Source: a virus
Direction: 5' to 3' (one strand)
Length of the DNA: 64,000 bases
IMG/VR virus record: IMGVR_UViG_3300050821_005575
Coordinates: 1-64,000 of that record
Below the pieces are notes generated by a model. That model did not search any database and was not told the origin of the DNA. It saw only the letters and a list, made by a program, of their open reading frames with translations. This document shows positions 23,475 to 53,561 of the stretch, one piece after another. The stretch's first letter is position 1. Each line of letters opens with the position of its first letter. Made by a program: the position numbers and the translations under genes.

Positions 23475-23609
23475 GTGGGCGCCAGACGACACAGCATAGA
23501 GTCCCTGAATCATCGCGGCCGGGGTATTGGTCTGTCCGCATCCGGCTCTGGTGCCCACACATCACGCGCCGGTATGTGCGCGGATGGACTACGGGCCGCG
23601 ATGATTCAG
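23475..23609 (+). ncRNA. Structured leader RNA, pseudoknot type, copy 1
   Basis: Helix A is GTGGGCGCCAG (23475-23485) with CTGGTGCCCAC (23548-23558), 11 bp with one wobble. Helix B is CTGAATCATCGCGGCC (23505-23520) with its exact complement at 23594-23609, 16 bp. Inside B lie a 10-bp stem with two wobbles (23530-23539/23580-23589) and CCGGC/GCCGG (23542-23546/23568-23572), whose loop carries the 3' arm of A. Order A-B-A'-B' is a pseudoknot. RNA copy 2 at 53458 has the same order and shared patches (GAGTCC, TGTCC-AT, CACG, ATGG-ACT). It starts at the predicted +1 of the promoter. Confidence 0.7.
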
Positions 23610-23628
23610 CGGCTCTAGGCACACTCCG

Positions 23629-23661
23629 GACGGCGGGGAGGAGGACCCCGTCGGCCGGATG
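23629..23661 (+). terminator. GC-rich hairpin in the early leader, possible attenuator
   Basis: CCGG-CGGGG around 23625-23640 pairs with CCCCG-CCGG at 23648-23661, with mismatches, around a purine loop (AGGAGGA). No T-run. It lies between the structured RNA and the helicase start. Confidence 0.35.
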
Positions 23662-23683
23662 AGAGACGAAGAAGGAGGAGCCC

Positions 23684-25429
23684 GTGACGAACGCTGTGGT
23701 CCCGGCGAAGCCCGCGCTGTCGCCCTGGACCTTCACCGACGAAGAGATCTTGGCGCACTTCCCAGCTGGAAAGACTCCGCGCCCCCAGCAGATCGAAGCG
23801 ATCAAGAAGATCAATGCCGCCTTCCGCGACGGGAAACGCGTCGTCGGTCTCGAGATGCCGGTCGGCTCCGGCAAGAGCTTCGTCTGCATGACCTTCGCGA
23901 ACGCCGCCCGTACGATCGGCGGCACGCACTTTTGCACGGCTCAACGAATTCTCCAGAAGCAGTACGCCCGGGACTTCCCTGCACCAGAGATGGAGGTCCT
24001 GATGGGGCGGGCAAACTACGCCTGCACGCATCCGGACGCCAAGCCGGACACCGACGCGGCGCACGGTGTCTGCCGTTCCAAGAGTAAGGGGATCCTGGCG
24101 ACCTGCCTGCATGACGACGCCGAGCCGATCGCCCGGGCAGCCGGGATCTCTCCGATGCAGGCCGCCGTCTCGCTCGCGCTACCGGCGAGCTGCCATAAGT
24201 GCCCCTACTGGTCTCAGCTCCAGCGTTGCGCGGATCACCCGATCACACTCTTCAACTTTTCGAGCTTCCTCTTCCAGCAACGCATCGGACGCTTCGGTAA
24301 ACGCGGCCTCATGCTGATCGATGAGTGCCACGCGACTGAGGGAAATCTGATGGCGTTCGTTTCGATGGAGTTGACCGAGTGGTCCCTGTCGATCGTCGAC
24401 GTGAAGATCGGCGACGAACCGATCGAGTCGAAGGCTCAGTTCGCCGAGTGGCTCCGCGAGACCGACCTGCTCCGTAAAATCGAAACGGCGCTCAAAAGCG
24501 CCGAGGACGGAGCCGAGGACGTTCCGGAGGATCTGTCGGCGGCCGAGGCCGACGCTCTGAAAGAACTCCAGATGAAGCTCAGTAACTTCATGGCGTACCT
24601 GGACAAGACGGAGTGGGTCCTAGAAACGAACGTGTACAAGGACCGTCGCGGTGAGTCGTCCCTCAAGATCGTCGCCCGTCCGCTCTACGCGAAGGACTTC
24701 GCCGAGGATCTACTTTTCAGGCACGCCGACCGCGTCCTGGCGATGTCCGGAACGATCCTAGACATCCGGATCTGGTCGGAAGGGCTCGGTCTCGATCCGA
24801 AGGCGGTCGCCTTCGTCTCGATGGATTCGGACTTCCCTGTCGAGAATCGAAAAGTCTTTTTGTCATACGCTGGGAATTGCTCTCGAAAAACTCTAGATGA
24901 AACTAAACCTAAGCTGGTACGACTGGTCCGCGCGATCTTAGCCGCCCACGTCGGTCAGCGCGGCCTGATCCACACGCAGAGCCACGACCTCGCCAGCTAC
25001 CTCCGGCAGGAGGTCGCCTCGCCTCGCTTCCTGTTCGCCGACCAGTTCGACGGCGACAAGGACGAGATGCTCCAGGCACACGCCGAGCGCGAGGACAGCG
25101 TCCTTGTCTCCCCTGGAATGAAGGAGGGCGTCGACCTCCGTGACGAGCTTGGCCGCTTCAATGTGATCCTGAAGATGCCGTATGCCTCGATCGGCGACAA
25201 GATCATCAAGGAGCGTATGGAGAAAAACCCAACATGGTATTCGTACAAAACAATTATTGACCTCCTCCAGAGTCTAGGGCGTACGACTCGAAGCAAGACA
25301 GACTGGAGTTACACCTACATTCTGGATAGCGGATTTGAAAATCTCTTATTTAGAAATGGGCACATGATCCCGGACTGGGTAAAGGCTGCCTTTGTTCGTG
25401 GCCTTCCAAAGGAGATCAGACGTGCTTGA
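23684..25429 (+). CDS. DinG/XPD-like superfamily 2 helicase
   Basis: 581 aa from GTG 23684 with AAGGAGGA upstream. Walker A is PVGSGKS (residues 59-65) and the DECH box is LIDECHATE (213-216). Cysteines at 114, 130, 141, 170, 173 and 182 lie between them, where XPD/DinG enzymes hold a 4Fe-4S cluster. The second domain has VLAMSGTILD, GLIHTQS, and SLGRTTRSKTDW as the motif VI-like region. It unwinds DNA with 5'-3' polarity in family members. The last 70 codons are AT-richer, next to an inserted HNH gene. Confidence 0.85.
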   Translation: MTNAVVPAKPALSPWTFTDEEILAHFPAGKTPRPQQIEAIKKINAAFRDGKRVVGLEMPVGSGKSFVCMTFANAARTIGGTHFCTAQRILQKQYARDFPAPEMEVLMGRANYACTHPDAKPDTDAAHGVCRSKSKGILATCLHDDAEPIARAAGISPMQAAVSLALPASCHKCPYWSQLQRCADHPITLFNFSSFLFQQRIGRFGKRGLMLIDECHATEGNLMAFVSMELTEWSLSIVDVKIGDEPIESKAQFAEWLRETDLLRKIETALKSAEDGAEDVPEDLSAAEADALKELQMKLSNFMAYLDKTEWVLETNVYKDRRGESSLKIVARPLYAKDFAEDLLFRHADRVLAMSGTILDIRIWSEGLGLDPKAVAFVSMDSDFPVENRKVFLSYAGNCSRKTLDETKPKLVRLVRAILAAHVGQRGLIHTQSHDLASYLRQEVASPRFLFADQFDGDKDEMLQAHAEREDSVLVSPGMKEGVDLRDELGRFNVILKMPYASIGDKIIKERMEKNPTWYSYKTIIDLLQSLGRTTRSKTDWSYTYILDSGFENLLFRNGHMIPDWVKAAFVRGLPKEIRRA

Positions 25430-26261
25430 AAGAACTGGACTTTGCAACTGCGGCTGCGGCGGTAGAACTACAGTAGCAAAAAAGAACTGCAAAACATCGA
25501 ATAGAATGAAGGGATTTAGTTCATTTTACATTCGAGGGCACCAACCTAAAGATTCTGTAAGGTTGAGCCAAGATAGACTTCTCAACGAGAATAAGATCTG
25601 TACTTCCTGCAAACTTGAGAAAAAAAAATCTGAATTCAGAAAGAAAAGTGGGGCGTATGGAGACGGGCGTTCATCGTATTGCTTTCCTTGCGAAAAAGTA
25701 AAATTAAAAAATTACTTCAAAACAGAAGCTGGAAAGCAATCAAGAAAAAGAGCTGCTGTAAAACTTCGTAAATCCGGCTACTATAAAAATCTTGAATGCA
25801 GGGTAGATCAGAGATTTCGTCGAGCAAAGCAAAGAGCAAAATCAATAGGAAGGTTATTTGATATTTCATTCGAAGAGTACAAAGAAATAATCTCAAAGCC
25901 TTGCCACTACTGCAGGCTTCCGATGGATCAGAAGTCAGGATACTGCCTAGAACGGCTTGATAATTCAGTTGGGTATACAAAAATAAACGTAGTTCCATGC
26001 TGTACGCTATGTAACTGCACAAGAAGCAATAGATTCACTGTCGGAGAAATGATTTCTTTTCTTGGACCAACAATTCACATTATCCGTACTTCAAGAACTT
26101 GCAATAACCTAGATCCGCAGCACTATCTTGGGTTAATCGAAAAATTCAAATCTCTATTTTCCGAATTCAATCAACAGCTAAAGGATAGCTTTAGTTGCGA
26201 TACGACCCATTCCGACACAGCGCCCGTGTCTAAGGAACAGAAGAAGGTCGAGCCGCAGTAG
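25422..26261 (+). CDS. HNH homing endonuclease in an AT-rich island
   Basis: 279 aa from GTG 25422, with AAAGGAG upstream and an 8-nt overlap with the helicase stop. It has an N-terminal zinc knuckle (CNCGCGGRT), a second Cys pair (CTSCKLEKKKSEFRK...CFPC), then the HNH core: CHYCRLPMDQKSG, LERLDNSVGYTKINVVPCC and CNCTRSN. The gene is strongly AT-rich compared with both neighbours, indicating recent insertion. It is the clearest horizontally acquired gene in the window. Confidence 0.85.
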   Translation: MLERTGLCNCGCGGRTTVAKKNCKTSNRMKGFSSFYIRGHQPKDSVRLSQDRLLNENKICTSCKLEKKKSEFRKKSGAYGDGRSSYCFPCEKVKLKNYFKTEAGKQSRKRAAVKLRKSGYYKNLECRVDQRFRRAKQRAKSIGRLFDISFEEYKEIISKPCHYCRLPMDQKSGYCLERLDNSVGYTKINVVPCCTLCNCTRSNRFTVGEMISFLGPTIHIIRTSRTCNNLDPQHYLGLIEKFKSLFSEFNQQLKDSFSCDTTHSDTAPVSKEQKKVEPQ

Positions 26262-26292
26262 ACGGCCCGAAGGGAAGAAGAAGGAGGAGAGT

Positions 26293-27567
26293 ATGTCCGG
26301 CGACCCGTTCGAGGATCCCGTCGTTCATAAGCAGTACCTGAAGATCGCCCTGTCCGGCGAGGGCGGATCCGGAAAAACAAGAGCGCTGCTGTCGTTCCCG
26401 AAACCCTGCGTCATCGATACCGAGAAGGGCACGCTGCCGTACCGGGGCAAGTACGACTTCAAGGTGAAGGTCCTGAACCGCTGGCGCCAGCTCGACGGCG
26501 TGCTCAAGTGGCTCAGGGCGAACCCTGGCGTCTACGAGACACTCGCGATCGACTCGACGACGATCTTCTACCTGGATCTGATCCAGGAGATCGTCGACTA
26601 CATCAAGAACAAGCGCGGCAACGAGATCATGTCCCCGGGCGACTGGGGAATCGAAAAGAGGCGTTGGGCCGCCTTCCTGAACCAGTTGGTCGAGCTGCCG
26701 ATGCACGTCATCCTCTCCTTCCGAGAGAAGGCCGAGTACGAGGAGACCATCAACAAGATGGGCGAGGAGGTCCGGAAGAAGACCGGCTCGTTCCTCGCCG
26801 AAGCCGACAAGCAGACCGAGTATCTGTTCGACCTCGGCTACCGCTGCCACACGGAGCTCAACAAGAAGGACAAGACGACGAAGTTCCTGATGACCTGCAC
26901 GAAGACGCGCTTCGACTGGTCGCCGAAGTATGGCATCTGGGACGTGACCGGCAAGCGCGCCTACCAGGAGTTCTTTGCACCGCACGCCGTGAAGATGCTG
27001 GACGCCCCGGACGCGCCGGTCGTCGAGCCGACCGAGCCGATCCTGATCCTGCCGGATCCGACGCCGGTCGAGCGGACCGCCGACGCCATCGAGACCGTCG
27101 CGAAGGCTGACCCCGAGACGATCAAGGCCGCCGCCGAGAGCTTCGCGAAGCCGAAGCCGGAATCCGACACAATGGAGACGCTGAACAAGCTCTTCAGCTA
27201 TCCGAAGCCGGACCCGTCCCAGCCGGAGGCGACGCTCGAGGATATCAAGGTCCTGATGACCCGTTGGAGTGAAATCAACTGGCCCGACCAGAAGTACAAG
27301 TGCCGAGCCCAGACCTGCGGGGCGGACGGACACACCCATCACAACACGACGAAAGCCGAAGGGAAGTCGCTCCTGCTGGCCGCCTACGACGTCGCCTCGT
27401 CGAAGGAGCTCCGGAAGCCACAGGTCGATTTTCTCTACGACGCATTCGGCAAGGTCCTGTCCGGACTTGCCTTCATGGCTCGCGATGCGAATGGAGCCGT
27501 CTACATCGCGACGCCTCCCGGTGAGACGGAGGAGGAGGTGCGGGCGAACGTCCTGAAGTGGGAGTAG
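26293..27567 (+). CDS. Sak4-like RecA-fold ATPase
   Basis: 424 aa. Walker A is GEGGSGKT (22-29) and the Walker B region is ETLAIDSTTIFY near residue 86. The fold and context (helicase before, SSB-like protein after) match the phage Sak4/AAA_24 group used in single-strand annealing and recombination. Residues 230-330 are a Pro/Glu-rich linker. The C-terminal 110 residues (CRAQTCGADGHTHH...) add a Cys/His patch and a helical domain not typical of Sak4. Confidence 0.8.
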   Translation: MSGDPFEDPVVHKQYLKIALSGEGGSGKTRALLSFPKPCVIDTEKGTLPYRGKYDFKVKVLNRWRQLDGVLKWLRANPGVYETLAIDSTTIFYLDLIQEIVDYIKNKRGNEIMSPGDWGIEKRRWAAFLNQLVELPMHVILSFREKAEYEETINKMGEEVRKKTGSFLAEADKQTEYLFDLGYRCHTELNKKDKTTKFLMTCTKTRFDWSPKYGIWDVTGKRAYQEFFAPHAVKMLDAPDAPVVEPTEPILILPDPTPVERTADAIETVAKADPETIKAAAESFAKPKPESDTMETLNKLFSYPKPDPSQPEATLEDIKVLMTRWSEINWPDQKYKCRAQTCGADGHTHHNTTKAEGKSLLLAAYDVASSKELRKPQVDFLYDAFGKVLSGLAFMARDANGAVYIATPPGETEEEVRANVLKWE

Positions 27568-27641
27568 ATGTTTGCTCTGGAGGGGGTGGACCGCTGTGGT
27601 TGACTTCCTAATACCGAACAAAGAAAAAGAAAGGAAGAACA

Positions 27642-28271
27642 ATGGGTAATCCAGAGAATCCCTTCGCGGACTTCGAGACCGACTTCAAGTCCGCCGACAA
27701 GGCGGATCCGGCGGCGACTCCAGGTCGCGTTCCTCCGGAGACCTACAAGTTTGTCCTGACCGCCGCGGACGTGAAGGGCGACGGCGTCCTCGCGGACCAC
27801 GAGGTCTTCGTCGCGAACTCCGGATCGAAGGGCTTCAAGCTCTTCTGCGAGATCCTTGAGCCCGAGTCCGTCCCGAACCCGAAGACCGGCGAGCCGCACG
27901 TCACGAAGGGCGTCGTCCTCGAGCATGTCTTCTGGGTCACGCAGAAGAATCTCCCGTACATCAAGCGGGACATCTCAACGATCCTCGAGCGCGACCTCGG
28001 CTCACTGACCGAGCTCACGACAACCACCTGGGCCGGTCGGACCTTCGAGGGTGTCGTGAAGGATGAAACCAGGGACGGCTACACGCGCAGCCGGATCGCC
28101 TTCATCAACGCCTGGGTCCCCGTCGCCGAGGACAAGAAGGAGGATCAGAAGAAGCTCGAAGCGAGCAAGGCGAAGACCGCGCAGCCCGCGAAGGGTGCGG
28201 CAACTCACGCAAAGGGTGCGGCGCCTGTGAAGGGGCAGCCCGCGACCAAGTCCGGCAGCTCGGATTTCTAG
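27642..28271 (+). CDS. SSB-like DNA-binding protein
   Basis: 209 aa. Beta-rich core from YKFVLTAADV through FKLFCEILEPES to TWAGRTFEGVV, compatible with an OB-type or DUF669-like fold, followed by a Lys/Ala-rich linker and the tail SGSSDF. Together with the Sak4-like ATPase it forms a typical phage recombination pair. AGGAA lies before ATG. The 27568-27641 gap has no visible promoter. Confidence 0.65.
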   Translation: MGNPENPFADFETDFKSADKADPAATPGRVPPETYKFVLTAADVKGDGVLADHEVFVANSGSKGFKLFCEILEPESVPNPKTGEPHVTKGVVLEHVFWVTQKNLPYIKRDISTILERDLGSLTELTTTTWAGRTFEGVVKDETRDGYTRSRIAFINAWVPVAEDKKEDQKKLEASKAKTAQPAKGAATHAKGAAPVKGQPATKSGSSDF

Positions 28272-28308
28272 CACGTTCCGAAGGGGACTGACATCCTCTT
28301 CTCTCTCT

Positions 28309-28355
28309 GCTGTCCACCGGGTCCTCCCTATTCCCGGTGGACAGCGATAGAGGGA
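28309..28355 (+). promoter_or_regulatory. Hairpin with possible pseudoknot in the primase leader
   Basis: GCTGTCCACCGGG and CCCGGTGGACAGC pair perfectly (13 bp, 28309-28321/28333-28345). The 11-nt loop contains CCTCC, which could mimic an anti-Shine-Dalgarno, and TCCCT (28325-28329), which can pair with AGGGA at 28351-28355. A second hairpin CCGCGC/GCGCGG lies at 28377-28396, just before the primase ribosome-binding site. Confidence 0.5.
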
Positions 28356-28417
28356 ACGGGCTAGATCGGGTGGGATCCGCGCGGTGGCACGCGCGGCATA
28401 GAACGGAGAGAGTCGCG

Positions 28418-30832
28418 GTGTCTGACACGAAGCCGGAGATCGCATCTTCGGCACGCTTCATACAAGAGCTCTGGCGATCCGCCCCAGCAGACTGGATCGT
28501 CGAGATCAATCTCCTCCAGTACCGGCCGACCCAGGATAACCCCGACGCGAAGCGGATGCGGGCGCTCTTCTTTCCGGTTAAGCAGGCGCTCGCCGACTGG
28601 GAGACGATCCGGAGGCAGCTCGAACACTTCAACAAGACCCAGGTCGAGAACATCCACCACGGCGTCAATCCGCGCTTCCGGAAACCGAAAAAGCACGGTC
28701 TGAACTCAGACGTCTCGCACTACGTCGCGGCCTGGGTCGACGTCGATTTCCACGGCCAGGAAACAGCCGTCCGGAAGCAGTTCGCAGAAGTAATCTCAGA
28801 CCTGCGCGCCCGTGGCCTCGGACCGTCCGTCATCATCGAGTCCGGACGTGGCCTGCACGCCTACTGGCTCTTCACCCAGCCGGTCCTGGTCGCGGTCGCC
28901 CGTCCGATCTGCACGGGCCTTCAGGACTACTTCAAGATCGCCGACCCTGTCAGCGACCAGCGCCGGATCCTCCGGCTGCCGGGCTTCGCGAATCTGAAGG
29001 ACCCGAGGGATCCTCGCTTCTGCACGATCGCCGAGGCGACCTGGGAGCGCTACGCGCCAGAGGCTTTCAAGGACTTCGCGATCGACCCGAAGAAGAGCGA
29101 ACACGACCTCGAGCTCGAAGTGGAGGAGAAAGAGAAGTCCCAGACGAAGACCTCGTCTCGGGACTCCCGGATCGAAGAGATTAAGGGCGGCGTCGACGAG
29201 TCCGGTGGTCCTTACGGGGGGCGCCACCTATCGGCCGTTGCTCTCGCCGGGCACTACTGCTCGAAGCTCAAGACGAAGAAGCTCGCGATGTACGCGATGA
29301 AGGACTGGAACACGAAGAACCGGCCGCCGATGCCGGACGACGAGGTCGAGAAGATTGTCGAGGATATCTGGGCTCGCGAGGAGATCAAGCGCGCCGAGGA
29401 GAAGGAAGACCGGAAGGACCGGCAAGACGACGCCCCAAAGGGGCCATCAGACGGCCCGCCCTGGTTCGACGAGGACGGCCGACTCGTCCCGGCGCTGCTG
29501 GCCGCGCACATCATGTCCGAGACGCGCTTCCTGGCGACGCCGATCGGCGACGACGGGAAGGGTATCCGGCTGTACTTCTACAGGGACGGCGTCTTCAAGC
29601 CCGGTGGATCCGACTTCGCCCGTCGCGAGATCGTGAAGGCGATGGGCAAGTCTCTCCGTGACAAGCACCTGACCGAGGTCGTCGAGCTCATCGTCGAGCT
29701 ATCAAAGAGACCGTACGATGAAGTCGATCTTTACGCGAAGAATCTGATCAACGTCAAGAACGGAATGCTCGACTGGAGGACGAAGCAGCTCTCCCCTCAC
29801 GACCCGAAGTACCTCTCGACGATCCAGATTCCGGTCGTCTGGGATCCTGCGGCGAAGTCCGAGACGCTCGACAGGTTCTTCAAGACGATCCTGCCGGAGG
29901 ACGCGATCCTTCTCGTCGAGGAGTACGTCGGGCACATGATGATCCCGGACGCCTCGATGACGAAGTGTCTCGTCCTGGTCGGGGAGGGCGGGAACGGAAA
30001 GTCGACGTTCCTCGAGCTCGTCGAGCACCTGATCGGAGAGCGGAACATTTCGTACTGCTCGCTCCAGAGCCTCACCGAGGAGCGCTTCCTGGCCTCGGTC
30101 CTGATCGGGAAGCTCGCGAACTGCTACGACGAGCTCGAGTCGAAGGCGCTCGAGAACACCGGGATCTTCAAGCAGATCACCGACGGGAATCAGATCAAGG
30201 CCGAGGAGAAGGGTAAGGCGCCGTTCTGGTTCCGACCGTTCTGCCGGATGGTCTTCGCGACGAACCAGATGCCCCGCGCGACTGACAGGTCCTCGGCCTA
30301 CTTCGACCGATTCCTTTTCGTTGAGTTCAATCAGCGGATCAGGGATACCGGGAGCGAGATCAAGAAGTACTCAGAGAAGCTGGTCTCCGAACCTGGACTG
30401 CTGTCGGCGTTCCTGTCGCGAGCGGTCGACGGGCTTGGCCGCCTCATAGCTCGAAGCCGATTCACGATTCCCGGATCCTCGAAGAACGCGCTCGAGGAGT
30501 ACCGGCGGGACTGCAACTCGGCCTACGACTTCCTCCGGGAGTGCTGTCGCGAGGAGACGAACGGCTGGCTCGCCGGGCCACTCGTCTACGACCGGTACAA
30601 GGTTTGGTCCGAGGATGGCGGCCGGAAACCGATGTCGACGCGCGAGTTCAACAAGACCCTCCGGGGTGCGAATGTTAGAGAGGTCCGGCGCGGCGAGGCG
30701 CGTGGCTGGGGCGGTATGACGTGGTCGAACGGTCACCCACCGACTGGCGCTCGGGACGAAGTCCAGGAGTTTGGTAAGTCGAGGCCTACAGACGCTTCGT
30801 CACCGACGAAACAGCTTGGCCTTGATTTTTGA
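28418..30832 (+). CDS. PrimPol-D5 superfamily 3 primase-helicase
   Basis: 804 aa from GTG 28418 (CGGAGAG upstream). N-terminal AEP primase motifs: WVDVDF (D108, D110), SGRGLHAYW (142-150) and DQRRILRLPGFANLK (180-194). A charged linker follows (250-370). The C-terminal half is D5/SF3: Walker A GEGGNGKST (about 523-531), CYDELE as Walker B-like, and MVFATNQMPRATD as motif C. It combines priming and unwinding in one polypeptide, so it is the likely replication initiator. No DNA polymerase gene is seen in the window. Confidence 0.9.
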   Translation: MSDTKPEIASSARFIQELWRSAPADWIVEINLLQYRPTQDNPDAKRMRALFFPVKQALADWETIRRQLEHFNKTQVENIHHGVNPRFRKPKKHGLNSDVSHYVAAWVDVDFHGQETAVRKQFAEVISDLRARGLGPSVIIESGRGLHAYWLFTQPVLVAVARPICTGLQDYFKIADPVSDQRRILRLPGFANLKDPRDPRFCTIAEATWERYAPEAFKDFAIDPKKSEHDLELEVEEKEKSQTKTSSRDSRIEEIKGGVDESGGPYGGRHLSAVALAGHYCSKLKTKKLAMYAMKDWNTKNRPPMPDDEVEKIVEDIWAREEIKRAEEKEDRKDRQDDAPKGPSDGPPWFDEDGRLVPALLAAHIMSETRFLATPIGDDGKGIRLYFYRDGVFKPGGSDFARREIVKAMGKSLRDKHLTEVVELIVELSKRPYDEVDLYAKNLINVKNGMLDWRTKQLSPHDPKYLSTIQIPVVWDPAAKSETLDRFFKTILPEDAILLVEEYVGHMMIPDASMTKCLVLVGEGGNGKSTFLELVEHLIGERNISYCSLQSLTEERFLASVLIGKLANCYDELESKALENTGIFKQITDGNQIKAEEKGKAPFWFRPFCRMVFATNQMPRATDRSSAYFDRFLFVEFNQRIRDTGSEIKKYSEKLVSEPGLLSAFLSRAVDGLGRLIARSRFTIPGSSKNALEEYRRDCNSAYDFLRECCREETNGWLAGPLVYDRYKVWSEDGGRKPMSTREFNKTLRGANVREVRRGEARGWGGMTWSNGHPPTGARDEVQEFGKSRPTDASSPTKQLGLDF

Positions 30833-31759: not shown

Positions 31760-31760
31760 G

Positions 31761-36436: not shown

Positions 36437-36464
36437 TTGACACTCATACGTATAGGTGTATAAT
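36437..36464 (+). promoter_or_regulatory. Rightward sigma70-type promoter inside the glycan island
   Basis: TTGACA (36437-36442), 16-nt spacer, TATAAT (36459-36464). CATACG (36445-36450) and CGTATG (36470-36475) form an inverted pair around the -10 and could be an operator. The start of the next gene (36473) lies near the predicted +1, so translation may be leaderless. Confidence 0.75.
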
Positions 36465-36472
36465 TGGATCGT

Positions 36473-36598
36473 ATGGAAAAGATCAAGCTGACCGTTCTGT
36501 CCTGCGAAAAGTGCAGACACCGTTGGATTCCAAGACATCAGAAGCAACCGGCGGTCTGCCCGAAGTGTAAGCGGAAGGACTGGACTGTTAAGAGGTAG
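36473..36598 (+). CDS. Zinc-ribbon microprotein
   Basis: 41 aa. LSCEKCRHRWIPR...AVCPKCKRKDW is a textbook two-knuckle zinc ribbon, as used to bind nucleic acid. No Shine-Dalgarno; ATG is within a few bases of the predicted transcription start. Confidence 0.65.
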   Translation: MEKIKLTVLSCEKCRHRWIPRHQKQPAVCPKCKRKDWTVKR

Positions 36599-47145: not shown

Positions 47146-47155
47146 AGGAGGAATC

Positions 47156-47350
47156 ATGCTGAAGGAACTGTTCACGCACATCGACGCCTTCGTGACGAAG
47201 TACGGCGGCTCGACGCCGGACAAGATGAGGGCCGACCTCCTGGAGCTCATCCAGAAGGCCTCCGACCACGGCGCCGATAAGAACCAAGGGAACGTTGCCG
47301 GGATCGCCGTCAAGGCGATCAAGGCGCTGTTCGGCAAGAAGGAGGACTGA
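47156..47350 (+). CDS. Small helical protein
   Basis: 64 aa with GAGGAGG upstream. Helical, Lys-rich C-terminus (VAGIAVKAIKALFGKKED). No family. Confidence 0.55.
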   Translation: MLKELFTHIDAFVTKYGGSTPDKMRADLLELIQKASDHGADKNQGNVAGIAVKAIKALFGKKED

Positions 47351-47352
47351 CC

Positions 47353-47463
47353 GTGACGGGCGAGCTGGCGCCGTTCGTCCACGTCGCGATCGGCTTCGCG
47401 CTCGGGATCTTCACATGGTCGATCCTGTGCGGGGGACGACGGCGCCGAAGGAGGGGGCTATGA
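47353..47463 (+). CDS. Single-pass membrane microprotein
   Basis: 36 aa from GTG. One transmembrane helix (HVAIGFALGIFTWSILCGG) and an Arg tail (RRRRRRGL). Stop overlaps the next ATG. Confidence 0.5.
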   Translation: MTGELAPFVHVAIGFALGIFTWSILCGGRRRRRRGL

Positions 47464-47945
47464 AGACACTGGACGCAGATGAAGTTACCGAGGAGACTGC
47501 ACACCGGGAGCGGAAGTGGGGGCTCCTGCAGGCGCGGACCATCTCCGATGGCGGTCAGACCGTCTACATGAAGCGCCTGACGATCCTGCTGACGCCGTGG
47601 TTCTCGATCAAGCTCCATCGGATCTACCGGCCGGACAAGGATCGTGACCTCCACGATCACCCCTGGACGTTCTTCTCGATCCTTCTCTTGGGTCGGTACA
47701 TCGAGGACACGGTCAACGGCCCGCGCTTCGTCAACTGGTGGAACTGGAAGCGCGCGGAGGGTCGACACTCGATCCTCGTGACGACCCGGACGCCGGTCTG
47801 GACGCTCGTCTTCACCGGCCCGAAGCGGCGGGTCTGGGGTTTCTGGGTGGACGGAGGAACTCGGTTCGTCGACTGGGAGACGTACGACACGCTGAAGGGA
47901 CGTGGGGAGACCTCTTCGCTCCAGGATCAGACTAAGGTTTTATAA
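47460..47945 (+). CDS. Cupin-like protein
   Basis: 161 aa; AAGGAGGGG upstream. LLTPWFSIKLHRIYRPDKDR, DLHDHPWTFFSILLLGRY and a later beta hairpin fit the one-domain cupin often found in phage and bacterial sugar loci. Metal ligands could be the two His of DLHDHPW. Role unknown. Confidence 0.65.
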   Translation: MKTLDADEVTEETAHRERKWGLLQARTISDGGQTVYMKRLTILLTPWFSIKLHRIYRPDKDRDLHDHPWTFFSILLLGRYIEDTVNGPRFVNWWNWKRAEGRHSILVTTRTPVWTLVFTGPKRRVWGFWVDGGTRFVDWETYDTLKGRGETSSLQDQTKVL

Positions 47946-47964
47946 TCTACGAACGGAGGCGAAG

Positions 47965-48285
47965 GTGAATCTACTCGAGGTCCAGTCGAAGCTCCCGTGG
48001 GGGATGAAGTACAGCGAGCTCTTCCAGAGGAATCCATGCATCCATAAGGACTTCCAGCACGCCCTCGTCCATGTTGCGAAGGCCTCCGGGAAGCTCTGGA
48101 CGATGGTTGAAGCTGCAGATCATTCTATCGACGTACCGAACTTTCCGAAGGCTGAGGTCGAGAAGTATCTGGCCGACCTCGTGATCTGCGCACTGCGCAT
48201 GGCGAATACGAACCCGAGCGGACTGATCGACCTTCAGGCTGCGGTCATCAACCGCCTGGAGACGAAGAACGGGGTGAAGCTGTGA
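47965..48285 (+). CDS. MazG-like protein
   Basis: 106 aa from GTG (GGAGG upstream). HALVHVAKASGKLWTMVEAADH and KYLADLVICALRMANTNP resemble the helical MazG-type nucleotide pyrophosphohydrolases of phages, though the usual E-x-x-E pattern is only partly visible. Catalysis is uncertain. Confidence 0.5.
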   Translation: MNLLEVQSKLPWGMKYSELFQRNPCIHKDFQHALVHVAKASGKLWTMVEAADHSIDVPNFPKAEVEKYLADLVICALRMANTNPSGLIDLQAAVINRLETKNGVKL

Positions 48286-48443
48286 AGGTTCACATCGCCG
48301 CGCTGGTCGACCTCAGCGCGAAGCGCGGAGGCTGGCCGTCGCATTCCAGTCTCGTCGGTCGATGCGGCCGGACTCGACCTCAGGAGACCACGACAAGACG
48401 GAGTCGAGCGACCTGTAAAGCTTGCTTAAAAGCGAAGGTCTAA
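48282..48443 (+). CDS. Small Cys-containing protein
   Basis: 53 aa from GTG, overlapping the preceding stop. VHIAALVDLSAKRGGW...CGR...TCKACLKAK matches the H...C...CxxC plan of small phage zinc proteins. Confidence 0.5.
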   Translation: MKVHIAALVDLSAKRGGWPSHSSLVGRCGRTRPQETTTRRSRATCKACLKAKV

Positions 48444-48444
48444 G

Positions 48445-48669
48445 ATGGAAGACGCGATCAAGACCGTCTGCACGATCCTTGGAGCTCCGATCTGCACGTT
48501 TTTCTGGTGGGTTATCAGTCAGTCATTCCAGAAAACCCTCGTAAAGGACACCGGCTGGAAGTGGCTGAAGTACCCGTTCATGATCGCAGACGGCGCGTAC
48601 GCCGGACTGTGCGGCTACGCCTTCGCGACCGAACTGACGAGGCTTGGTCTTTTTATAGCTGCACACTAG
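48445..48669 (+). CDS. Small membrane protein
   Basis: 74 aa. Two hydrophobic segments (VCTILGAPICTFFWWVI; AYAGLCGYAFATELT). Its stop lies in the hairpin at 48659. No family. Confidence 0.6.
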   Translation: MEDAIKTVCTILGAPICTFFWWVISQSFQKTLVKDTGWKWLKYPFMIADGAYAGLCGYAFATELTRLGLFIAAH

Positions 48670-48684
48670 AAATATAGTGTGCAG
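48659..48684 (+). repeat. GGCAC-type intercistronic hairpin, copy 3 (extended)
   Basis: CTGCACACTA and TAGTGTGCAG pair perfectly over 10 bp around GAAATA. It contains the stop codon and overlaps the poor -35 region of the tmRNA promoter. Confidence 0.6.
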
Positions 48685-48700
48685 AATCCGAAACAGAAGC

Positions 48701-48706
48701 TATAAT
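48701..48706 (+). promoter_or_regulatory. TATAAT box upstream of the tmRNA
   Basis: Perfect -10 hexamer, 51 nt before the mature tmRNA 5' end. The -35 position reads TGTGCA, a poor match. A CGGCAGT/ACTGCCG hairpin (48712-48731) lies in the predicted precursor leader. Confidence 0.5.
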
Positions 48707-48756
48707 CCGTCCGGCAGTTGAGCGACTGCCGTGGTGGCATTGTGTTCTTTGGAAAT

Positions 48757-49050
48757 GGGCCCGAACAGGATTCGACCGGAACCGCGGGGCCGGGTGTTGC
48801 GCGCCGTAGTTGGTCGCTTGGCTACGATAAAAGGCGACCAAACAACTAACTGGCAAGCGCCAGCTCCTCGCCGCGGCCTGACCGCGACCGTCCGCTCTCG
48901 CTGACCTCCGATAGGCAGGGACGGACGTAAACAGGATCGGAGGACCCCTGGGCACACTGCTGTAGGTTGGCGGACCTAAACCGCCTACGCGCGTAGAAGC
49001 CTCGGTTTCCGGCTCTAGGGACGGCGGTTCGATTCCGCCCGGGTCCACCA
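48757..49050 (+). ncRNA. ssrA: tmRNA (transfer-messenger RNA)
   Basis: 294 nt. The acceptor stem is GGGCCCG at the 5' end with CGGGTCC before A-CCA, including the alanine-identity G3.U70 pair; CCA is encoded. T-arm is GGCGG-TTCGATT-CCGCC. Pseudoknot PK1 is CGTAG/CTACG (48805-48809/48822-48826) with GGTCGC/GCGACC (48812-48817/48834-48839). Twelve nt after PK1 the resume codon GGC (48852) opens the tag GKRQLLAAA, stop TGA 48879-48881, a degron-like end. It rescues stalled ribosomes. Flanked by phage-type genes on both sides. Confidence 0.92.
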
Positions 49051-49069
49051 TTTACAGGAAGGGAAGAGA

Positions 49070-49618
49070 ATGCATCCATCGGTCATCGACTTTCTTCGTC
49101 GAAACGTCCAGTCCAGCGACATCCTCGGGAAGAGCGTACTTGAAGTCGGCAGCTACAACGTCAACGGGAGCCCGCGCGAGGTCATCGAGCCGCTGCGGCC
49201 GGGCTCGTACATCGGCGTCGACGCGCAGTCCGGCCCGTGCGTCGACAAAGTCGTCGCGGCGGACGATCTCGTCAAGGAGTTCGGCGAGGAGCGCTTCGAC
49301 GTCGTCGTCTCGACCGAAATGCTCGAGCACGTCCGCTACTGGCGCCGGATCGTCACGCAGATGAAGGCTGTCGTGAAGATCGGCGGCCTGCTGGTCGTCA
49401 CGACTCGTTCGCCGGGCTTCCCGTACCATGCTTATCCGGAGGATCACTGGCGCTTCACGAAGGATCACTTTCTGTCGATCTTTCAGGATATGGCGATCCT
49501 GGTCCTCGAGGATGACATTCCGAACATGCCGGGCGTCCTACTGAAGGCTCGACGTAAGCCTTGCCACCTCCTGACCGTCGAGGAGCTCGGTCCGATCACC
49601 CCCGGGAACTCGAGGTAA
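49070..49618 (+). CDS. Class I SAM-dependent methyltransferase
   Basis: 182 aa; AGGAAGGG upstream, 19 nt after the tmRNA. Motif I is VLEVGSYNVNG, the acidic residue after strand 2 is YIGVDAQSG, and VVVSTEMLEHVRYW follows. Common type in phage and polysaccharide loci. Target unknown. Confidence 0.75.
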   Translation: MHPSVIDFLRRNVQSSDILGKSVLEVGSYNVNGSPREVIEPLRPGSYIGVDAQSGPCVDKVVAADDLVKEFGEERFDVVVSTEMLEHVRYWRRIVTQMKAVVKIGGLLVVTTRSPGFPYHAYPEDHWRFTKDHFLSIFQDMAILVLEDDIPNMPGVLLKARRKPCHLLTVEELGPITPGNSR

Positions 49619-49619
49619 C

Positions 49620-50405
49620 GTGAGTAAGAAACCGAAGAGCGACTACCGGATCCCGTCGGCCTGCTTCGTCTGCGGCGCAGACTTCATGGGTCGCTACAAC
49701 GTCGGCGATCGGGCGAAGGTCTGCACGCCGCCGGACCACGTCTGCAAGCGGAAGACCGTCAAGATCCCCGGCCGCCGGGACAAGCTCATCACCTGCGTCG
49801 ACGGCTGCTGCCGGTCGAAGTACGCGAAGGGCTCAACGGTCTCATCGTCGAACGCCGCGATCGACACGCGGAAGTACCTGAGCGAGGACGAGTACCAGAA
49901 GGTTATCGCTGCCAGCCGGAAGATCGACGATCCGGCCGGGATCACGATCCGGTTCATCCTAGAGACTGGCTGCCGATGCGGCGAGGCTCTGCTTGTCCGG
50001 AAGCGCTACATCGAGTGGAAGGACGGGCCGATCTCGACGATCCGGATGCCGACCCTGAAGAAGGCTGGGCACCCGCTTCTGCCGGTCGACCTCGACAACA
50101 AGTCCGACCTCGCGAAGGAGCTCCGGACCTGGACCCGGAAGATGTCCGACACGGATATGATCTTCCAGATCCCAAAACGGACGCTCCAGAGCCTCTTCGA
50201 GCGGATCCTGGATAAGATCAAGACGGACCGCTTCGGCCTGATCCACATCCTCCGGCACACCCGCGCCAGCCGCCTGATCGAGGCTGGGATGGACTTCAAC
50301 TACGTTCGCTCTCAGCTCCGCTGGTCGTCGATCGAGCTGGCGAAGATCTACGTCCACACGAAGGAGGAGAAGGTTGTCAGCGGATTCGAGAAGCTACGGA
50401 AATGA
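49620..50405 (+). CDS. Tyrosine recombinase (integrase) with zinc-rich N-terminus
   Basis: 261 aa from GTG. Catalytic residues: Arg119 (ETGCRCGEAL), His209 and Arg212 (HILRHTRAS), Trp235 and Tyr244 (IYVHTKEE). Residues 14-65 hold seven cysteines (CFVCG...CTPP...CKRK...CVDGCC), probably a zinc domain in place of a full core-binding domain. It lies one gene after the tmRNA, and ssrA is a well-known integration target, so the element may integrate at the host ssrA. Confidence 0.8.
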   Translation: MSKKPKSDYRIPSACFVCGADFMGRYNVGDRAKVCTPPDHVCKRKTVKIPGRRDKLITCVDGCCRSKYAKGSTVSSSNAAIDTRKYLSEDEYQKVIAASRKIDDPAGITIRFILETGCRCGEALLVRKRYIEWKDGPISTIRMPTLKKAGHPLLPVDLDNKSDLAKELRTWTRKMSDTDMIFQIPKRTLQSLFERILDKIKTDRFGLIHILRHTRASRLIEAGMDFNYVRSQLRWSSIELAKIYVHTKEEKVVSGFEKLRK

Positions 50406-50749
50406 TACAGAAAGTAAAAGAGGAGTTCTGTTTTTCCTGCGAGGGGCTCCTCCTTACGCCGGACGAGAAGCTCGGTCCGTTCTGTAAGCTCTGCTTCCAG
50501 AAGACGAAGCGCCGAGACCCGCTCATGCGGGCTGCGATCCGCTCGTCCGCGGTCGTCGTCGTGCCGCTGGTCTGTCCGCACGAGGAGCGGAAGCACGGCA
50601 ACTGTCGCTTCAAGGAGCCGCGGTACTTCTCCGTGATCGTCCTCGACAAGCAGCTTGAGGCGACGAAGATCACGGGTCCTTACACGGAGCGCGGCGCCGA
50701 GCGCGAGGCGAAGCGGGTCCGCCGGGGGATCGACAGGAGGGGACGATGA
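50402..50749 (+). CDS. Zinc-knuckle protein
   Basis: 115 aa. FCFSCEGLLLTPDEKLGPFC then CKLC gives a four-Cys site; a beta region follows, ending in a basic tail. No family. Confidence 0.55.
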   Translation: MIQKVKEEFCFSCEGLLLTPDEKLGPFCKLCFQKTKRRDPLMRAAIRSSAVVVVPLVCPHEERKHGNCRFKEPRYFSVIVLDKQLEATKITGPYTERGAEREAKRVRRGIDRRGR

Positions 50750-50976
50750 GACGGCTGGTCGGACGTATCTCGAAGTACGACTGCGACCGCTGCGGGAAGA
50801 AGGAGTTCTGCCAGAGCACCGGCTTCGAGAAGCCGAGCGACGACTTGTCGGTAAATCGAGGCGCCTCGATCATGCTTCCGATCGTCGAGGACGGCGAGCT
50901 CTCCTTCCAGACGAAGGATCTCTGCGGGGATTGCGTGACGTCGCTGTCGGACTGGATGAAGAAGAAGGAGGGTTAG
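50746..50976 (+). CDS. Zinc-ribbon-like protein
   Basis: 76 aa. YDCDRCGKKEFC and LCGDCVTSLSDW place two CxxC pairs about 50 residues apart. Overlaps its upstream neighbour by 4 nt. Confidence 0.55.
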   Translation: MRRLVGRISKYDCDRCGKKEFCQSTGFEKPSDDLSVNRGASIMLPIVEDGELSFQTKDLCGDCVTSLSDWMKKKEG

Positions 50977-50977
50977 T

Positions 50978-51325
50978 ATGTTCCAGAAGAGTATCGAAGC
51001 GATCATCGCTCAGGGCGTCAAGGATCTCGAGGCCGTCGTGAAGCAGACACGTCAGGCGGCCGACGACGCGAAGATTCGAGTCTCGCAGTGCCAGTCCGAG
51101 ATCCAGTCTCTCGTCAACCTTGCGAAGCAGGTCCCGGAGAAGGTATTTGACCGGTACTCGAACGTTCTGGTCGGGACGGTCAATCAGTACGGGGAGAGTC
51201 CTACCGGCCTGTATGCCTCGATTAGATTATCAACATCGGAGGCACAGCTTCAAGGGCTCATGGGTTCAGAAGATCTGAAGCGTGGTAAGTACCGCGTGAT
51301 CGTACTCCTTGAGCAGATCTCGTAG
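50978..51325 (+). CDS. Helical protein
   Basis: 115 aa. Helical N-terminal half (VKDLEAVVKQTRQAADDAKI), beta-like C-terminal half. No family. Confidence 0.5.
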   Translation: MFQKSIEAIIAQGVKDLEAVVKQTRQAADDAKIRVSQCQSEIQSLVNLAKQVPEKVFDRYSNVLVGTVNQYGESPTGLYASIRLSTSEAQLQGLMGSEDLKRGKYRVIVLLEQIS

Positions 51326-51520
51326 ATGAAGATGAGCATCGGTCTTAGGGCTGGTCTGTCGTACGACACTACCTGCAATCGTCCAGGAGCAAAGCCGCCC
51401 ATGCTGTACTACCTGCACGGCAAGGGTCGCTTCATTCGCTGCACCAGCCGTCTCTGGAAGACCGTAAATAAACGTGTCGTCGCTCAAGGTCGAGATCTCC
51501 CTGGTTTCTGTCATAAATAG
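51326..51520 (+). CDS. Small unknown protein
   Basis: 64 aa, ATG abutting the upstream stop. Basic and aromatic, two cysteines. No family. Confidence 0.45.
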   Translation: MKMSIGLRAGLSYDTTCNRPGAKPPMLYYLHGKGRFIRCTSRLWKTVNKRVVAQGRDLPGFCHK

Positions 51521-51528
51521 GAGGCTCT

Positions 51529-51753
51529 ATGTTCTGGTTTCTCAGGAAGCTCTTCTGGTGGCCCCGCTGGACCTACTCGATCGCCGTCGGCACCTCGCAC
51601 GCGAGCGCTGAGGAGGCGAAGGCGAACGCGCTGATCCAGGCAGGGAAGATCGGCGGCGAGATCATAGGGATTGCAGCGGCCGACATGTGCTGCCAGAATG
51701 AGGCGGTCCCCGGGGGATGCGAGTGGGACGTCTACCTGCTCGTCCGGAACTAG
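51529..51753 (+). CDS. Small protein with aromatic N-terminus
   Basis: 74 aa; AGGAGG upstream. FWFLRKLFWWPRW is a strongly amphipathic, possibly membrane-surface N-terminus. The rest is an alpha/beta domain with CC and C.W residues. No family. Confidence 0.5.
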   Translation: MFWFLRKLFWWPRWTYSIAVGTSHASAEEAKANALIQAGKIGGEIIGIAAADMCCQNEAVPGGCEWDVYLLVRN

Positions 51754-51774
51754 ACCGCCGACAGGGAGGAGACC

Positions 51775-52872
51775 ATGGAATCCGAGATCATCACCGAGCT
51801 GGACGGGTCCGGGATCCGCTTCGTTGGGCTCAGGAACCCGTCTCCGTTCCTGGACAGGACCGTCACCAACCGGAACGAGGCATACGCAATGCTCGGTGGT
51901 CACACGCTCGACGTCGACATACGGGCTGGCAAGGATCCTGTCCTCGCGCTCACGCCGGAGCTCCGCTTTCAGTACATGACCGAGGCGACGATCGACAAGC
52001 GGACCGGAATGCCTAAGGTCGTCCAGAAGAAGGGTGTCGCCAAGATCCAGCACTCCCACATGGACGAGTTCGTCCTGACGGCTCCGTCGCTCTTCACGGC
52101 GACCTCGAAGATGTCGGCGGCATCCTGGTCGGTCCCGGCAGGTCCGCCGTCGGTCGGCGGGGCCTGCGCCTCGGCCGAGCTCTACAAGAACACGTCGAAG
52201 TACAACGTCGCCCTCCAGCAGGGAGACGTCGAGCAGCGTCCGGCCTCGAAGCCGGAGTGGATCTGCAACTTCTGCTACGCCGGGAAGTCGAACTACATGC
52301 ACCGGACCTCACAGTACTCCCAGACGGCCCGCCTGATCTGGCTGACCGGCATGGTCGATCATCTGGGCGTCGACGGCGCCGCGGAGAAAATGGCCGAGGC
52401 GCTGCGGGTCCACCAGGGCAACACGAAGAGGCGCGCGAAGGCCGGAGAGAATCCGAAGTTCTTCCGGATACACGACTCCGGAGACTTCCAGCTGTCGCCG
52501 AATACGTACCTGCTCTGGTGTCTCGTCGCCCGGGCGATGCCGGAGGTCAACTTCTGGGCGCCGACCCGCATGTGGACCTTCCCGAAGTTCAACGAGCTTG
52601 TCCGCGCGAACCCGCCGCCGGATAACATGTCGATCCGGCCGTCGGCCCTGCACTTCGGCGACATCGCGCCGGACCTGGACGGCTTCGACCATGGGTCCTC
52701 AGCGCACTCGATCGAAGTCGATCCCGTCAAGGCCGGGAAGGCCGACTGGATCTGCCCGGCCTACCAGCACGACGGCCATACGTGCGCGGGTGCTGGCGGC
52801 CCGAAGGGCGAGAAGGACTGCCGTGTCTGCTGGGTCCACGTCGACATGTCCGTTTCCTACAGGAGCCACTGA
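51775..52872 (+). CDS. Gp88-like phage protein
   Basis: 365 aa; GGAGGAG upstream. ICNFCYAGKSNYM, then FFRIHDSGDFQLSPNTYLLW and VNFWAPTRMW match the family of mycobacteriophage gene 88 proteins. Function unknown in the family. It has further Cys pairs at the C-terminus. Confidence 0.7.
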   Translation: MESEIITELDGSGIRFVGLRNPSPFLDRTVTNRNEAYAMLGGHTLDVDIRAGKDPVLALTPELRFQYMTEATIDKRTGMPKVVQKKGVAKIQHSHMDEFVLTAPSLFTATSKMSAASWSVPAGPPSVGGACASAELYKNTSKYNVALQQGDVEQRPASKPEWICNFCYAGKSNYMHRTSQYSQTARLIWLTGMVDHLGVDGAAEKMAEALRVHQGNTKRRAKAGENPKFFRIHDSGDFQLSPNTYLLWCLVARAMPEVNFWAPTRMWTFPKFNELVRANPPPDNMSIRPSALHFGDIAPDLDGFDHGSSAHSIEVDPVKAGKADWICPAYQHDGHTCAGAGGPKGEKDCRVCWVHVDMSVSYRSH

Positions 52873-53135
52873 TGAACAAGCTGCAGGTCGAACTGGATCG
52901 CTTCCTGGGCGGTGCCCGCTCCAATCCGCCGGAGGCGAAGATGTACGAGTTCCTGGAGGTCCTGTCTGGGGACGGAAAGCTCTTCGACTACTCCGAGCAG
53001 GACTGGGTCGAGGCCGGTCGCTCCCAGGGCATGACCGACGACCAGATCGCGGCCTGGATCGAGACCGCGGCCTCCTGGCTCGACGACACGACCGACGAGG
53101 GGAAGTACGAGCCTGAGCTGGCGGCCTGGGCGTAG
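52872..53135 (+). CDS. Small acidic protein
   Basis: 87 aa overlapping the Gp88-like stop. Helical, acidic (IETAASWLDDTTDEGKYEPE). No family. The roughly 60 nt downstream hold no feature. Confidence 0.55.
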   Translation: MNKLQVELDRFLGGARSNPPEAKMYEFLEVLSGDGKLFDYSEQDWVEAGRSQGMTDDQIAAWIETAASWLDDTTDEGKYEPELAAWA

Positions 53136-53196
53136 CAGGCGGCGCCGGAGCGACTGCGCGGGAAGAGCGTAGTGGAAGTGTTTTAGGAGAAGAAGG

Positions 53197-53403
53197 ATGA
53201 GCGACGTCGACAACGGCGGTCAGGCTTTCCCAAGTGACAGCGATGAGTCTGGGTTCGCTGGAATGACACTTCGCGACTACTTCGCCAGTCAGGTGATCTT
53301 AGGTTACCTGAGAGGCGAGCCGATCCACATTGCAGCGCAACGGGCCTATGCGGCGGCGGACGCCATGATCGCCGTTCGTAACTTAAAGAAGGCTGCACAG
53401 TAA
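53197..53403 (+). CDS. Small phage-type protein
   Basis: 68 aa, preceded by AGGAGAAG. GGQAFPSDSDESGFAGMTLR followed by DYFASQ is a stretch seen in many small phage proteins of unknown function. Ends AAQ-stop within repeat copy 4. Confidence 0.6.
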   Translation: MSDVDNGGQAFPSDSDESGFAGMTLRDYFASQVILGYLRGEPIHIAAQRAYAAADAMIAVRNLKKAAQ

Positions 53404-53418
53404 TCGGGTTGAGTGCAG
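53393..53418 (+). repeat. GGCAC-type intercistronic hairpin, copy 4
   Basis: CTGCAC and GTGCAG pair; both arms differ from the consensus in compensating ways. It contains the TAA of the preceding gene. Confidence 0.65.
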
Positions 53419-53424
53419 AACAGC

Positions 53425-53453
53425 TTGACAGAGGTACGTTCAGTGTTTATACT
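53425..53453 (+). promoter_or_regulatory. Rightward sigma70-type promoter with overlapping inverted repeat
   Basis: TTGACA (53425-53430), 17-nt spacer, TATACT (53448-53453). TTCAGT (53439-53444) and ACTGAA (53451-53456) flank the -10 and may be an operator. Predicted start is about 53460, the first bases of the structured RNA. Confidence 0.8.
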
Positions 53454-53457
53454 GAAT

Positions 53458-53561
53458 GCTGTCCAAGGTGCTGTGCGATATGAGTCCTACGAACTGCGGC
53501 GATGTCCTATCTCTCGTACTGCGCCTTGGACAGTTCAGCACGTCAATGGGACTCGCCGCAG
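53458..53561 (+). ncRNA. Structured leader RNA, pseudoknot type, copy 2
   Basis: Helix A CTGTCCAAGGTGC (53459-53471) pairs with GCGCCTTGGACAG (53521-53533), 13 bp with one wobble. Helix B CTGCGGCGA (53494-53502) pairs with TCGCCGCAG (53553-53561). The order A-B-A'-B' is a pseudoknot, as in copy 1 at 23475. GAGTCC (53482-53487) can also pair with GGACTC (53549-53554), competing with B, which would suit a switch. The next gene follows at 53584. Confidence 0.7.

What the first reader, a model, noticed from the sequence alone, without database searches (positions are those of the whole stretch)
23475..53561. Two related pseudoknot RNAs, each starting at the +1 of a strong promoter
Seen: RNAs at 23475-23609 and 53458-53561 both have helix order A-B-A'-B', both begin within a base or two of the predicted start of a TTGACA/TATACT promoter, and share patches (GAGTCC, TGTCC-AT, CACG, ATGG-ACT) in the same order although the helix sequences differ. 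That is the pattern of a conserved RNA class. GAGTCC/GGACT can compete with helix B, so a switch is possible. The topology recalls HDV-type ribozymes or H-type riboswitches, but the helix lengths differ.
Basis: partly seen in the sequence, partly recalled or inferred. Interest (0 to 1): 0.85.

Follow-up and report, generated by a model that had tools for sequence, protein, structure and literature searches.

The report
Phage mRNA starts locked in pseudoknots
Two messages of an uncultivated phage, one of them leading its DNA-replication genes, begin at the very first base with a knotted RNA fold that is conserved in related phages; in the first message the same stretch appears also to encode a small protein whose start codon is hidden inside the knot, which suggests a built-in lock on the message's 5' end.

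Summary
The structures are real. Both RNAs begin at the predicted +1 of the only two exact TTGACA-N16/17-TATACT promoters in the window and fold as pseudoknots A-B-A'-B'. RNA1 (23475-23618) has six homologues in uncultivated phages, always 59-65 nt upstream of the start codon of a DinG-like helicase gene. Its helices covary strongly: 16 pairs have changes on both sides, against at most 4 when the pairing is slid. RNA2 (53458-53573) has one homologue, in the same genomic place but in front of an unrelated gene. Neither matches Rfam.

RNA1 and RNA2 are no more alike in sequence than shuffles. The GAGTCC/GGACT competitor is not conserved. Nothing points to an HDV-type ribozyme or a known riboswitch.

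New observation: in all seven RNA1s, GTG at +1 opens a 44-47-codon frame ending in TAG at the 3' edge of the fold. The same phages place other start codons 6-8 nt after a -10 box, so RNA1 is probably a leaderless small ORF. Helix A covers that start codon.

Best explanation: a 5'-terminal pseudoknot that locks the mRNA end and gates leaderless translation. The mechanism is inferred, not shown. put-like antitermination is the main rival.

The parts
23441..23468 (+). Promoter of RNA1: TTGACA, 16-nt spacer, TATACT; +1 at 23475
   Evidence: Exact match, 2 in window against 0.00 expected; exact in 5 of 7 homologues, -35 weaker in L066 and L067; -10 followed by exactly 6 nt and GTG in 7/7
23475..23618 (+). 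RNA1: pseudoknot RNA; the same nucleotides form an open frame GTG (+1) ... TAG of 47 codons, a probable leaderless small ORF
   Evidence: Seven homologues, covariation; frame open in 7/7, lengths 135-144 all divisible by 3
23475..23486 (+). Helix A 5' strand, contains the GTG at +1
   Evidence: 12 bp with 23547-23558; in the main block 6 of 9 pairs changed on both sides among homologues
23547..23558 (+). Helix A 3' strand (TCTGGTGCCCAC), in the apical loop of the long stem
   Evidence: duplex energy -23.5 kcal/mol
23497..23520 (+). Outer stem TAGAGTC (23497-23503) and helix B 5' strand (23505-23520)
   Evidence: pairs with 23594-23617; 7 of 22 pairs changed on both sides
23534..23537 (+). Inner stem P4, GTCC, with GGAC at 23586-23589
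   Evidence: 89% of cells paired in 7 sequences
23594..23617 (+). Helix B 3' strand (23594-23609) and outer stem GGCTCTA (23611-23617); TAG stop at 23616-23618
   Evidence: TAG kept in L030 and L067 although its two partner bases are lost
23625..23659 (+). Second hairpin with loop AGGAGGA
   Evidence: GGAGGA loop in 7/7 homologues, stem sequence different in each
23684..25429 (+). DinG-like DNA helicase, first large gene after RNA1 (SD AAGGAGG 23672-23678)
   Evidence: PF13307, PHROG 2488 DNA helicase E=1e-99; same gene after RNA1 in all relatives
53425..53453 (+). Promoter of RNA2: TTGACA, 17-nt spacer, TATACT
   Evidence: conserved in G002 with one change in the spacer
53458..53573 (+). RNA2: second 5'-terminal pseudoknot RNA
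   Evidence: homologue in G002 (L014 10705-10587, minus strand), 97% identical, identity ends at the 3' edge of the fold
53458..53471 (+). Helix A 5' strand of RNA2, with 53521-53534
   Evidence: 14 bp; C-G to U-A double change and G-U to A-U between the two copies
53482..53510 (+). Outer stem, helix B and inner stem of RNA2, 5' strands (GAGTCC; CGA; CTGCGGCGA; GTCCTAT)
   Evidence: pair with 53546-53573
53584..54003 (+). ORF directly after RNA2 (139 aa, no Pfam or PHROG match); a different ORF sits here in G002

Best explanation
RNA1 and RNA2 are 5'-terminal pseudoknots built into the starts of two rightward phage transcripts. The first 12-14 nt of the message pair with the apical loop of a long stem-loop formed by the next ~100 nt (shown by covariation for RNA1, compatible for RNA2). 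In RNA1 those first nucleotides include a GUG that opens a 44-47-codon frame filling the whole fold, so RNA1 is probably a leaderless small ORF ahead of the helicase operon (moderately supported). Proposed working (inferred): while the 5' strand is being made, or whenever helix A is opened, a 70S ribosome can take the 5'-terminal GUG. Once the apical loop has been transcribed, helix A covers +1 to +12, the stretch an initiating ribosome must hold, and closes both the start codon and the 5' end. The result would be a brief or conditional synthesis of the small protein and a 5' end protected from pyrophosphohydrolase, RNase E or RNase J, giving a long-lived operon mRNA. RNA2 would be the same kind of end lock without the leaderless frame. 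The helicase itself has its own Shine-Dalgarno site and, in RNA1 only, an intervening hairpin with an invariant GGAGGA loop that may carry separate translational control.
For: Helix A starts at +1 with no overhang in 7/7 RNA1s, and its pairs covary. The exact 5' position is needed for an end lock or a leaderless start, but not for an aptamer or an antiterminator. Whole structure: 16 pairs changed on both sides, 0 of 500 shuffles, at most 4 when slid. A wobble U-G at one pair in 5 of 7, with U-A in the other two, argues for RNA rather than a DNA palindrome. Frame: GTG at +1 to TAG, open in 7/7, all lengths divisible by 3, while both other forward frames are closed in at least 6 of 7; the two closest pairs differ only by 3-nt indels; amino-acid scores in this frame exceed permuted substitutions in several pairs; TAG is kept where pairing is lost. 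The same phages use leaderless starts: a zinc-ribbon microprotein gene has ATG 6-8 nt after a -10-like box in five of five relatives, and SprT-like at 61171 has ATG at 6 nt in the window. [quoted passage not shown] RNA2 precedes unrelated genes in two phages, so its function does not depend on the product.
Against: No transcript, translation or stability data. The host is unknown, so leaderless translation is inferred from gene layout. Coding evidence for the RNA1 frame is moderate: substitutions are not concentrated at third positions, codon-position GC is not gene-like, and the non-coding spacer to the helicase is also 2 mod 3 in six of seven. In L066 the middle of the frame is shifted relative to the others. 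RNA2 has no start codon at +1, so the gating half of the model does not cover it. A lock on a strong early promoter's mRNA looks wasteful unless something opens it, and no opener is identified.
Confidence: 0.4

Rival explanations
1. put-like antiterminators: the nascent RNA folds at the start of the transcript, binds RNA polymerase and lets it read through terminators and pauses in the long rightward operons, as putL and putR do in phage HK022.
For: HK022 also has two related structured RNAs (~70 nt), one on each early transcript, with putL just downstream of its promoter (PMC9378689). RNA1 heads the rightward arm (the genes to its left run leftward) and RNA2 heads a second segment of it. RNA2 is kept in front of unrelated genes, and some loop sequence is kept as well as pairing.
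Against: putRNA is two stem-loops, not a 5'-closed pseudoknot, and putR acts ~270 nt from its start, so no exact +1 is needed. Terminator-like sites downstream are not in excess (19 against 17.4 and 10 against 12.7 in shuffles) and the few on the + strand are weak. Does not explain the open frame.
Confidence: 0.2
2. Cis-regulatory leader that binds a protein or a metabolite (autoregulatory operator or riboswitch) and controls the helicase operon.
For: RNA1 is always 59-65 nt upstream of the same helicase gene and is followed by a hairpin with an invariant GGAGGA loop and then the ribosome-binding site; part of its loop region is identical between the window and L004.
Against: No U-run after the fold and the Shine-Dalgarno of RNA1 is not within it. 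The proposed competitor GAGTCC/GGACT is kept in none of the six homologues. No Rfam match. RNA2 precedes unrelated genes.
Confidence: 0.17
3. Autonomous non-coding RNA: the folded part is cut off from the transcript and acts in trans.
For: RNA2 identity (97%) covers promoter and fold and stops at the 3' edge of the fold; the fold is compact and would be stable.
Against: No terminator at the 3' edge; in RNA2 the Shine-Dalgarno and ATG of the next gene follow within 1-11 nt; RNA1 frame and helicase linkage unexplained.
Confidence: 0.1
4. Self-cleaving ribozyme of HDV-like topology.
For: The order A-B-A'-B' resembles the P1-P2 order of HDV ribozymes (own knowledge; helix order).
Against: No Rfam hit up to E=10; helix A 9-14 bp; cleavage at its own 5' edge would remove nothing because transcription starts there.
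Confidence: 0.02
5. DNA-level element (inverted repeats used as origin or protein site), with RNA folding incidental.
For: RNA1 lies at the divergence of the leftward and rightward gene arms, next to replication genes.
Against: Helices kept through wobble pairs (U-G in 5 of 7 at one pair); helix A tied exactly to the transcription start in 7/7.
Confidence: 0.05

Closest known systems
HK022 putL/putR RNAs (PMC9378689)
   Same: Two structured RNAs in one phage at the starts of two phage transcripts; cis-acting leaders not tied to one gene product
   Different: put: ~70 nt, two stem-loops with a short triplex, putR ~270 nt from its start; here 116-144 nt pseudoknots closed on nucleotide +1, no matching fold, open frame inside RNA1
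Leaderless mRNAs and their small 5' ORFs in mycobacteria (PMC4633059)
   Same: RTG at the transcript 5' end opening a small ORF ahead of a leadered gene
   Different: Those need nothing beyond the RTG; here the RTG and the following ~10 nt are paired in a conserved helix and the whole ORF lies in a pseudoknot
5'-terminal stem-loops that stabilise bacterial mRNAs (e.g. ompA leader; own knowledge, not checked here)
   Same: Base-pairing of the extreme 5' end
   Different: Here a pseudoknot with a distal loop, conserved by covariation, in phage transcripts
HDV-like ribozymes and H-type pseudoknot riboswitches (SAM-II, preQ1; own knowledge)
   Same: Helix order A-B-A'-B'
   Different: Much longer helices, no model match, no cleavable leader, no expression platform found

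Membership tests
   Model R1 from seven RNA1s does not list RNA2 at E<=1 over 244 kb; 8.3 bits, partly out of register, when the stretch is scored alone; alignment scores equal shuffles
Conserved structured RNA (RNA1) | Compensatory changes in homologues | tested here: met
   16 pairs changed on both sides, 92.3% paired, 0/500 shuffles, slid controls at most 4 pairs
Conserved structured RNA (RNA2) | Compensatory changes in homologues | tested here: inconclusive
   Only two copies; one double change and three wobble-compatible changes, none breaking a pair
Any family of Rfam 15 | Score at or above the family's gathering cut-off | tested here: not met
   best sub-threshold hits are mostly eukaryotic microRNA and lncRNA models, far below their cut-offs
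HDV-like ribozyme | 7-bp P1 at the cleavage site, P1.1 and catalytic C | tested here: not met
   Helix A is 9-14 bp; no Rfam hit. Cleavage itself not testable here
put antiterminator RNA | Two stem-loops binding the beta' zinc-binding domain of RNA polymerase | tested here: not met
   Fold differs: one long stem with a 5' pseudoknot. Polymerase binding and antitermination not testable with these tools
Leaderless small ORF (RNA1) | RTG at the transcription start followed by a conserved open frame | tested here: inconclusive
   GTG 6 nt after the -10 and frame open in 7/7, lengths divisible by 3; codon-level selection weak to moderate; start site predicted, not mapped
Riboswitch with transcriptional or translational expression platform | Terminator or Shine-Dalgarno alternately paired with the aptamer | tested here: not met
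   No U-run after either fold; competitor pairing not conserved
Riboswitch | Ligand binding | not testable with these tools
   needs in-line probing or SHAPE

The most novel reading that the evidence does not exclude
A phage class of self-locking leaderless messages: the message's own coding sequence folds so that its apical loop captures the 5'-terminal start codon, limiting translation of a microprotein to the time of transcription (or to an opening signal) and capping the mRNA end of the replication operon.
Probability: 0.28. Interest if true: 0.8.

Novelty: new variant of a known kind. Interest (0 to 1): 0.6.

Why it matters
If true, it is an RNA family without an Rfam entry that couples three things usually studied apart: promoter-defined 5' ends, leaderless translation and pseudoknot folding. 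It would show how a leaderless message can be regulated without any 5' leader, by folding its own coding region onto its start codon, and would give a compact, testable 5'-end lock for mRNA.

Tried and rejected
blastn of both RNAs and of 24 kb of the window against phage records: no match. Helicase and primase by tblastn find only remote cultured phages, so no cultured host. RNA1 pattern in 84,980 bacterial and archaeal genomes: 17 stretches; seven folded, covering all six source genomes, none with this fold, the rest being further copies of the Anaerolineales repeat. Promoter plus GAGTCY pattern in IMG/VR: 48 hits, mostly chance, among them L027 and L030 as new members; L041 has a 14-bp 5' helix but no helix B and was rejected. 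L064 and L065 matched the RNA1 pattern by chance. RNA2 pattern: only G002. RNA2 is not found in G001, G003-G006 by DNA search. GGAGGA-loop hairpins elsewhere: no wider regulon. P5 stem inside RNA1: weak, 82% paired, and likely to conflict sterically with helix A. Minus-strand model hits at the same places are mirror images of the palindrome. Frameshift-stimulating pseudoknot: rejected, the fold starts at the first base of the message. Searches failed for formal reasons.
Full report
What was checked. The window is part of a 70,980-base IMG/VR virus record. TTGACA-N16..19-TATACT occurs only twice in 64 kb, at 23441-23468 and 53425-53453, with 0.00 expected. RNA1 begins 6 nt after its -10 box. 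Helix A of RNA2 begins 4-5 nt after its -10 box. Minimum-energy folds (no pseudoknots allowed) give a long stem-loop in each (z = -5.6 and -2.6), and the loop is complementary to the 5' end over 12 and 14 nt. Interleaved 9+9 bp helices are common in a GC-rich 64-kb window (14 to 31 per randomised copy). Anchored at +1 and with the lengths seen, they did not arise in 2000 shuffles of either RNA.

Homologues of RNA1. The helicase gene led to G001 (84% identical protein) and the primase gene to G002. Two pattern scans gave L027, L030, L066 and L067. A later scan on the -10 box plus the 5' half found the same set and nothing new. All seven RNA1s are 135-144 nt, start with GTG exactly 6 nt after TATACT, end in CTCTAG, and are followed by a hairpin with an invariant GGAGGA loop, a Shine-Dalgarno site and the GTG start of a DinG-like helicase. 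On the alignment, 92.3% of cells pair. 16 of 44 pairs show changes on both sides (shuffles 8.5, none of 500 as high; slid pairings at most 4). Helix A alone has 6 of 9 such pairs in its main block.

Homologue of RNA2. G002 carries RNA2 at the corresponding place, 97% identical from the promoter to the 3' edge of the fold, after which similarity stops and an unrelated ORF begins. All differences inside helices keep pairing: one C-G to U-A exchange and three wobble changes. With two copies this is compatible with the fold, not proof of it. No other copy was found.

Are RNA1 and RNA2 one class? Not by the tests available. Alignment scores are within shuffles, and the RNA1 model does not recognise RNA2. 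Of the listed patches, GAGTC is kept in both families; the others are not kept among RNA1 homologues. They share promoter, 5'-anchored pseudoknot, GAGTCY and GTCC/GGAC. Distant kinship or convergence on one function remain open.

The reading frame. Every RNA1 length is a multiple of three, and the frame from GTG at +1 to the final TAG is open in all seven (VG.R...IESLN.RGRG...QRL* in the main group); both other forward frames are closed in at least six of seven. The two closest pairs differ by 3-nt indels only. TAG stays in L030 and L067, where its two pairing partners are gone. Against this, substitutions do not favour third positions, amino-acid scores are only partly better than permutation (p between 0.006 and 0.43 over non-independent pairs), and the non-coding spacer also keeps its length modulo three in six of seven. 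Leaderless starts are normal in these phages: a zinc-ribbon microprotein has ATG 6-8 nt after a -10-like box in G000, G001, G002, G003 and G006, and the SprT-like gene at 61171 has ATG at 6 nt. [quoted passage not shown] I therefore regard RNA1 as a probable leaderless small ORF (about 65-70%).

How it may work. Helix A covers +1 to +12, including the GUG. That is the stretch an initiating ribosome must hold on a leaderless message and the one 5'-dependent decay enzymes need free (general knowledge, not tested). Its estimated stability is -16 to -27 kcal/mol. The zero overhang at +1 in seven of seven is the strongest reason to prefer a 5'-end lock over an aptamer or an antiterminator. Shown: promoter match, fold, covariation, frame. 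Inferred: start site, translation, masking, protection, timing.

Rivals. HK022 putRNAs are the nearest functional analogue: two related leader RNAs in one phage that act on RNA polymerase without protein (PMC9378689). Their fold is different, and the operons here show no excess of terminator-like sites, so this stays a rival. An operator or riboswitch for the helicase operon fits RNA1 but not RNA2. A ribozyme is improbable because the transcript has no 5' leader to cleave and no Rfam model matches.

Limits. The phages are uncultivated, the host is unknown, and all seven RNA1s come from IMG/VR. No RNA data were available.

Noticed in passing
window 36437-36598: Third exact sigma-70 promoter (TTGACA-N16-TATAAT) with ATG 8 nt after the -10: a leaderless 41-aa zinc-ribbon microprotein, with relatives in G001, G002, G003 and G006 also 6-8 nt after a -10-like box.
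   Followed up: partly
window 61171-61205: Promoter containing the palindrome GACTACTGTACAGTAGTC between -35 and -10, ATG 6 nt after TATAAT of a SprT-like gene; the palindrome recurs upstream of the same gene in G001 (L009:4881), and a related promoter with TTGACTACTGTACAGTA lies in G002 (L014:2133, minus strand). Looks like a repressor operator.
   Followed up: no
window 48757-49050: Phage-encoded tmRNA with tag GKRQLLAAA, just before an ORF (49070) conserved in G001 and G002 and a tyrosine integrase gene (49620-50405), possibly an attachment region.
   Followed up: no
window 23625-23659: Hairpin with invariant GGAGGA loop and freely varying stem between RNA1 and the helicase in seven phages; could be a protein site or a presented Shine-Dalgarno sequence.
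   Followed up: partly
window 53456-53584: In RNA2 a frame (ATG 53456, GTG 53468) runs to a stop that overlaps the ATG of the next gene in both phages, but substitutions show no protein-level selection and the first ATG lies before the likely start site.
   Followed up: partly
L011 551-586 (G002): A 14-bp hairpin with a GGAGGA loop followed by AAGAAGAAGGA, without an RNA1-like fold.
   Followed up: no
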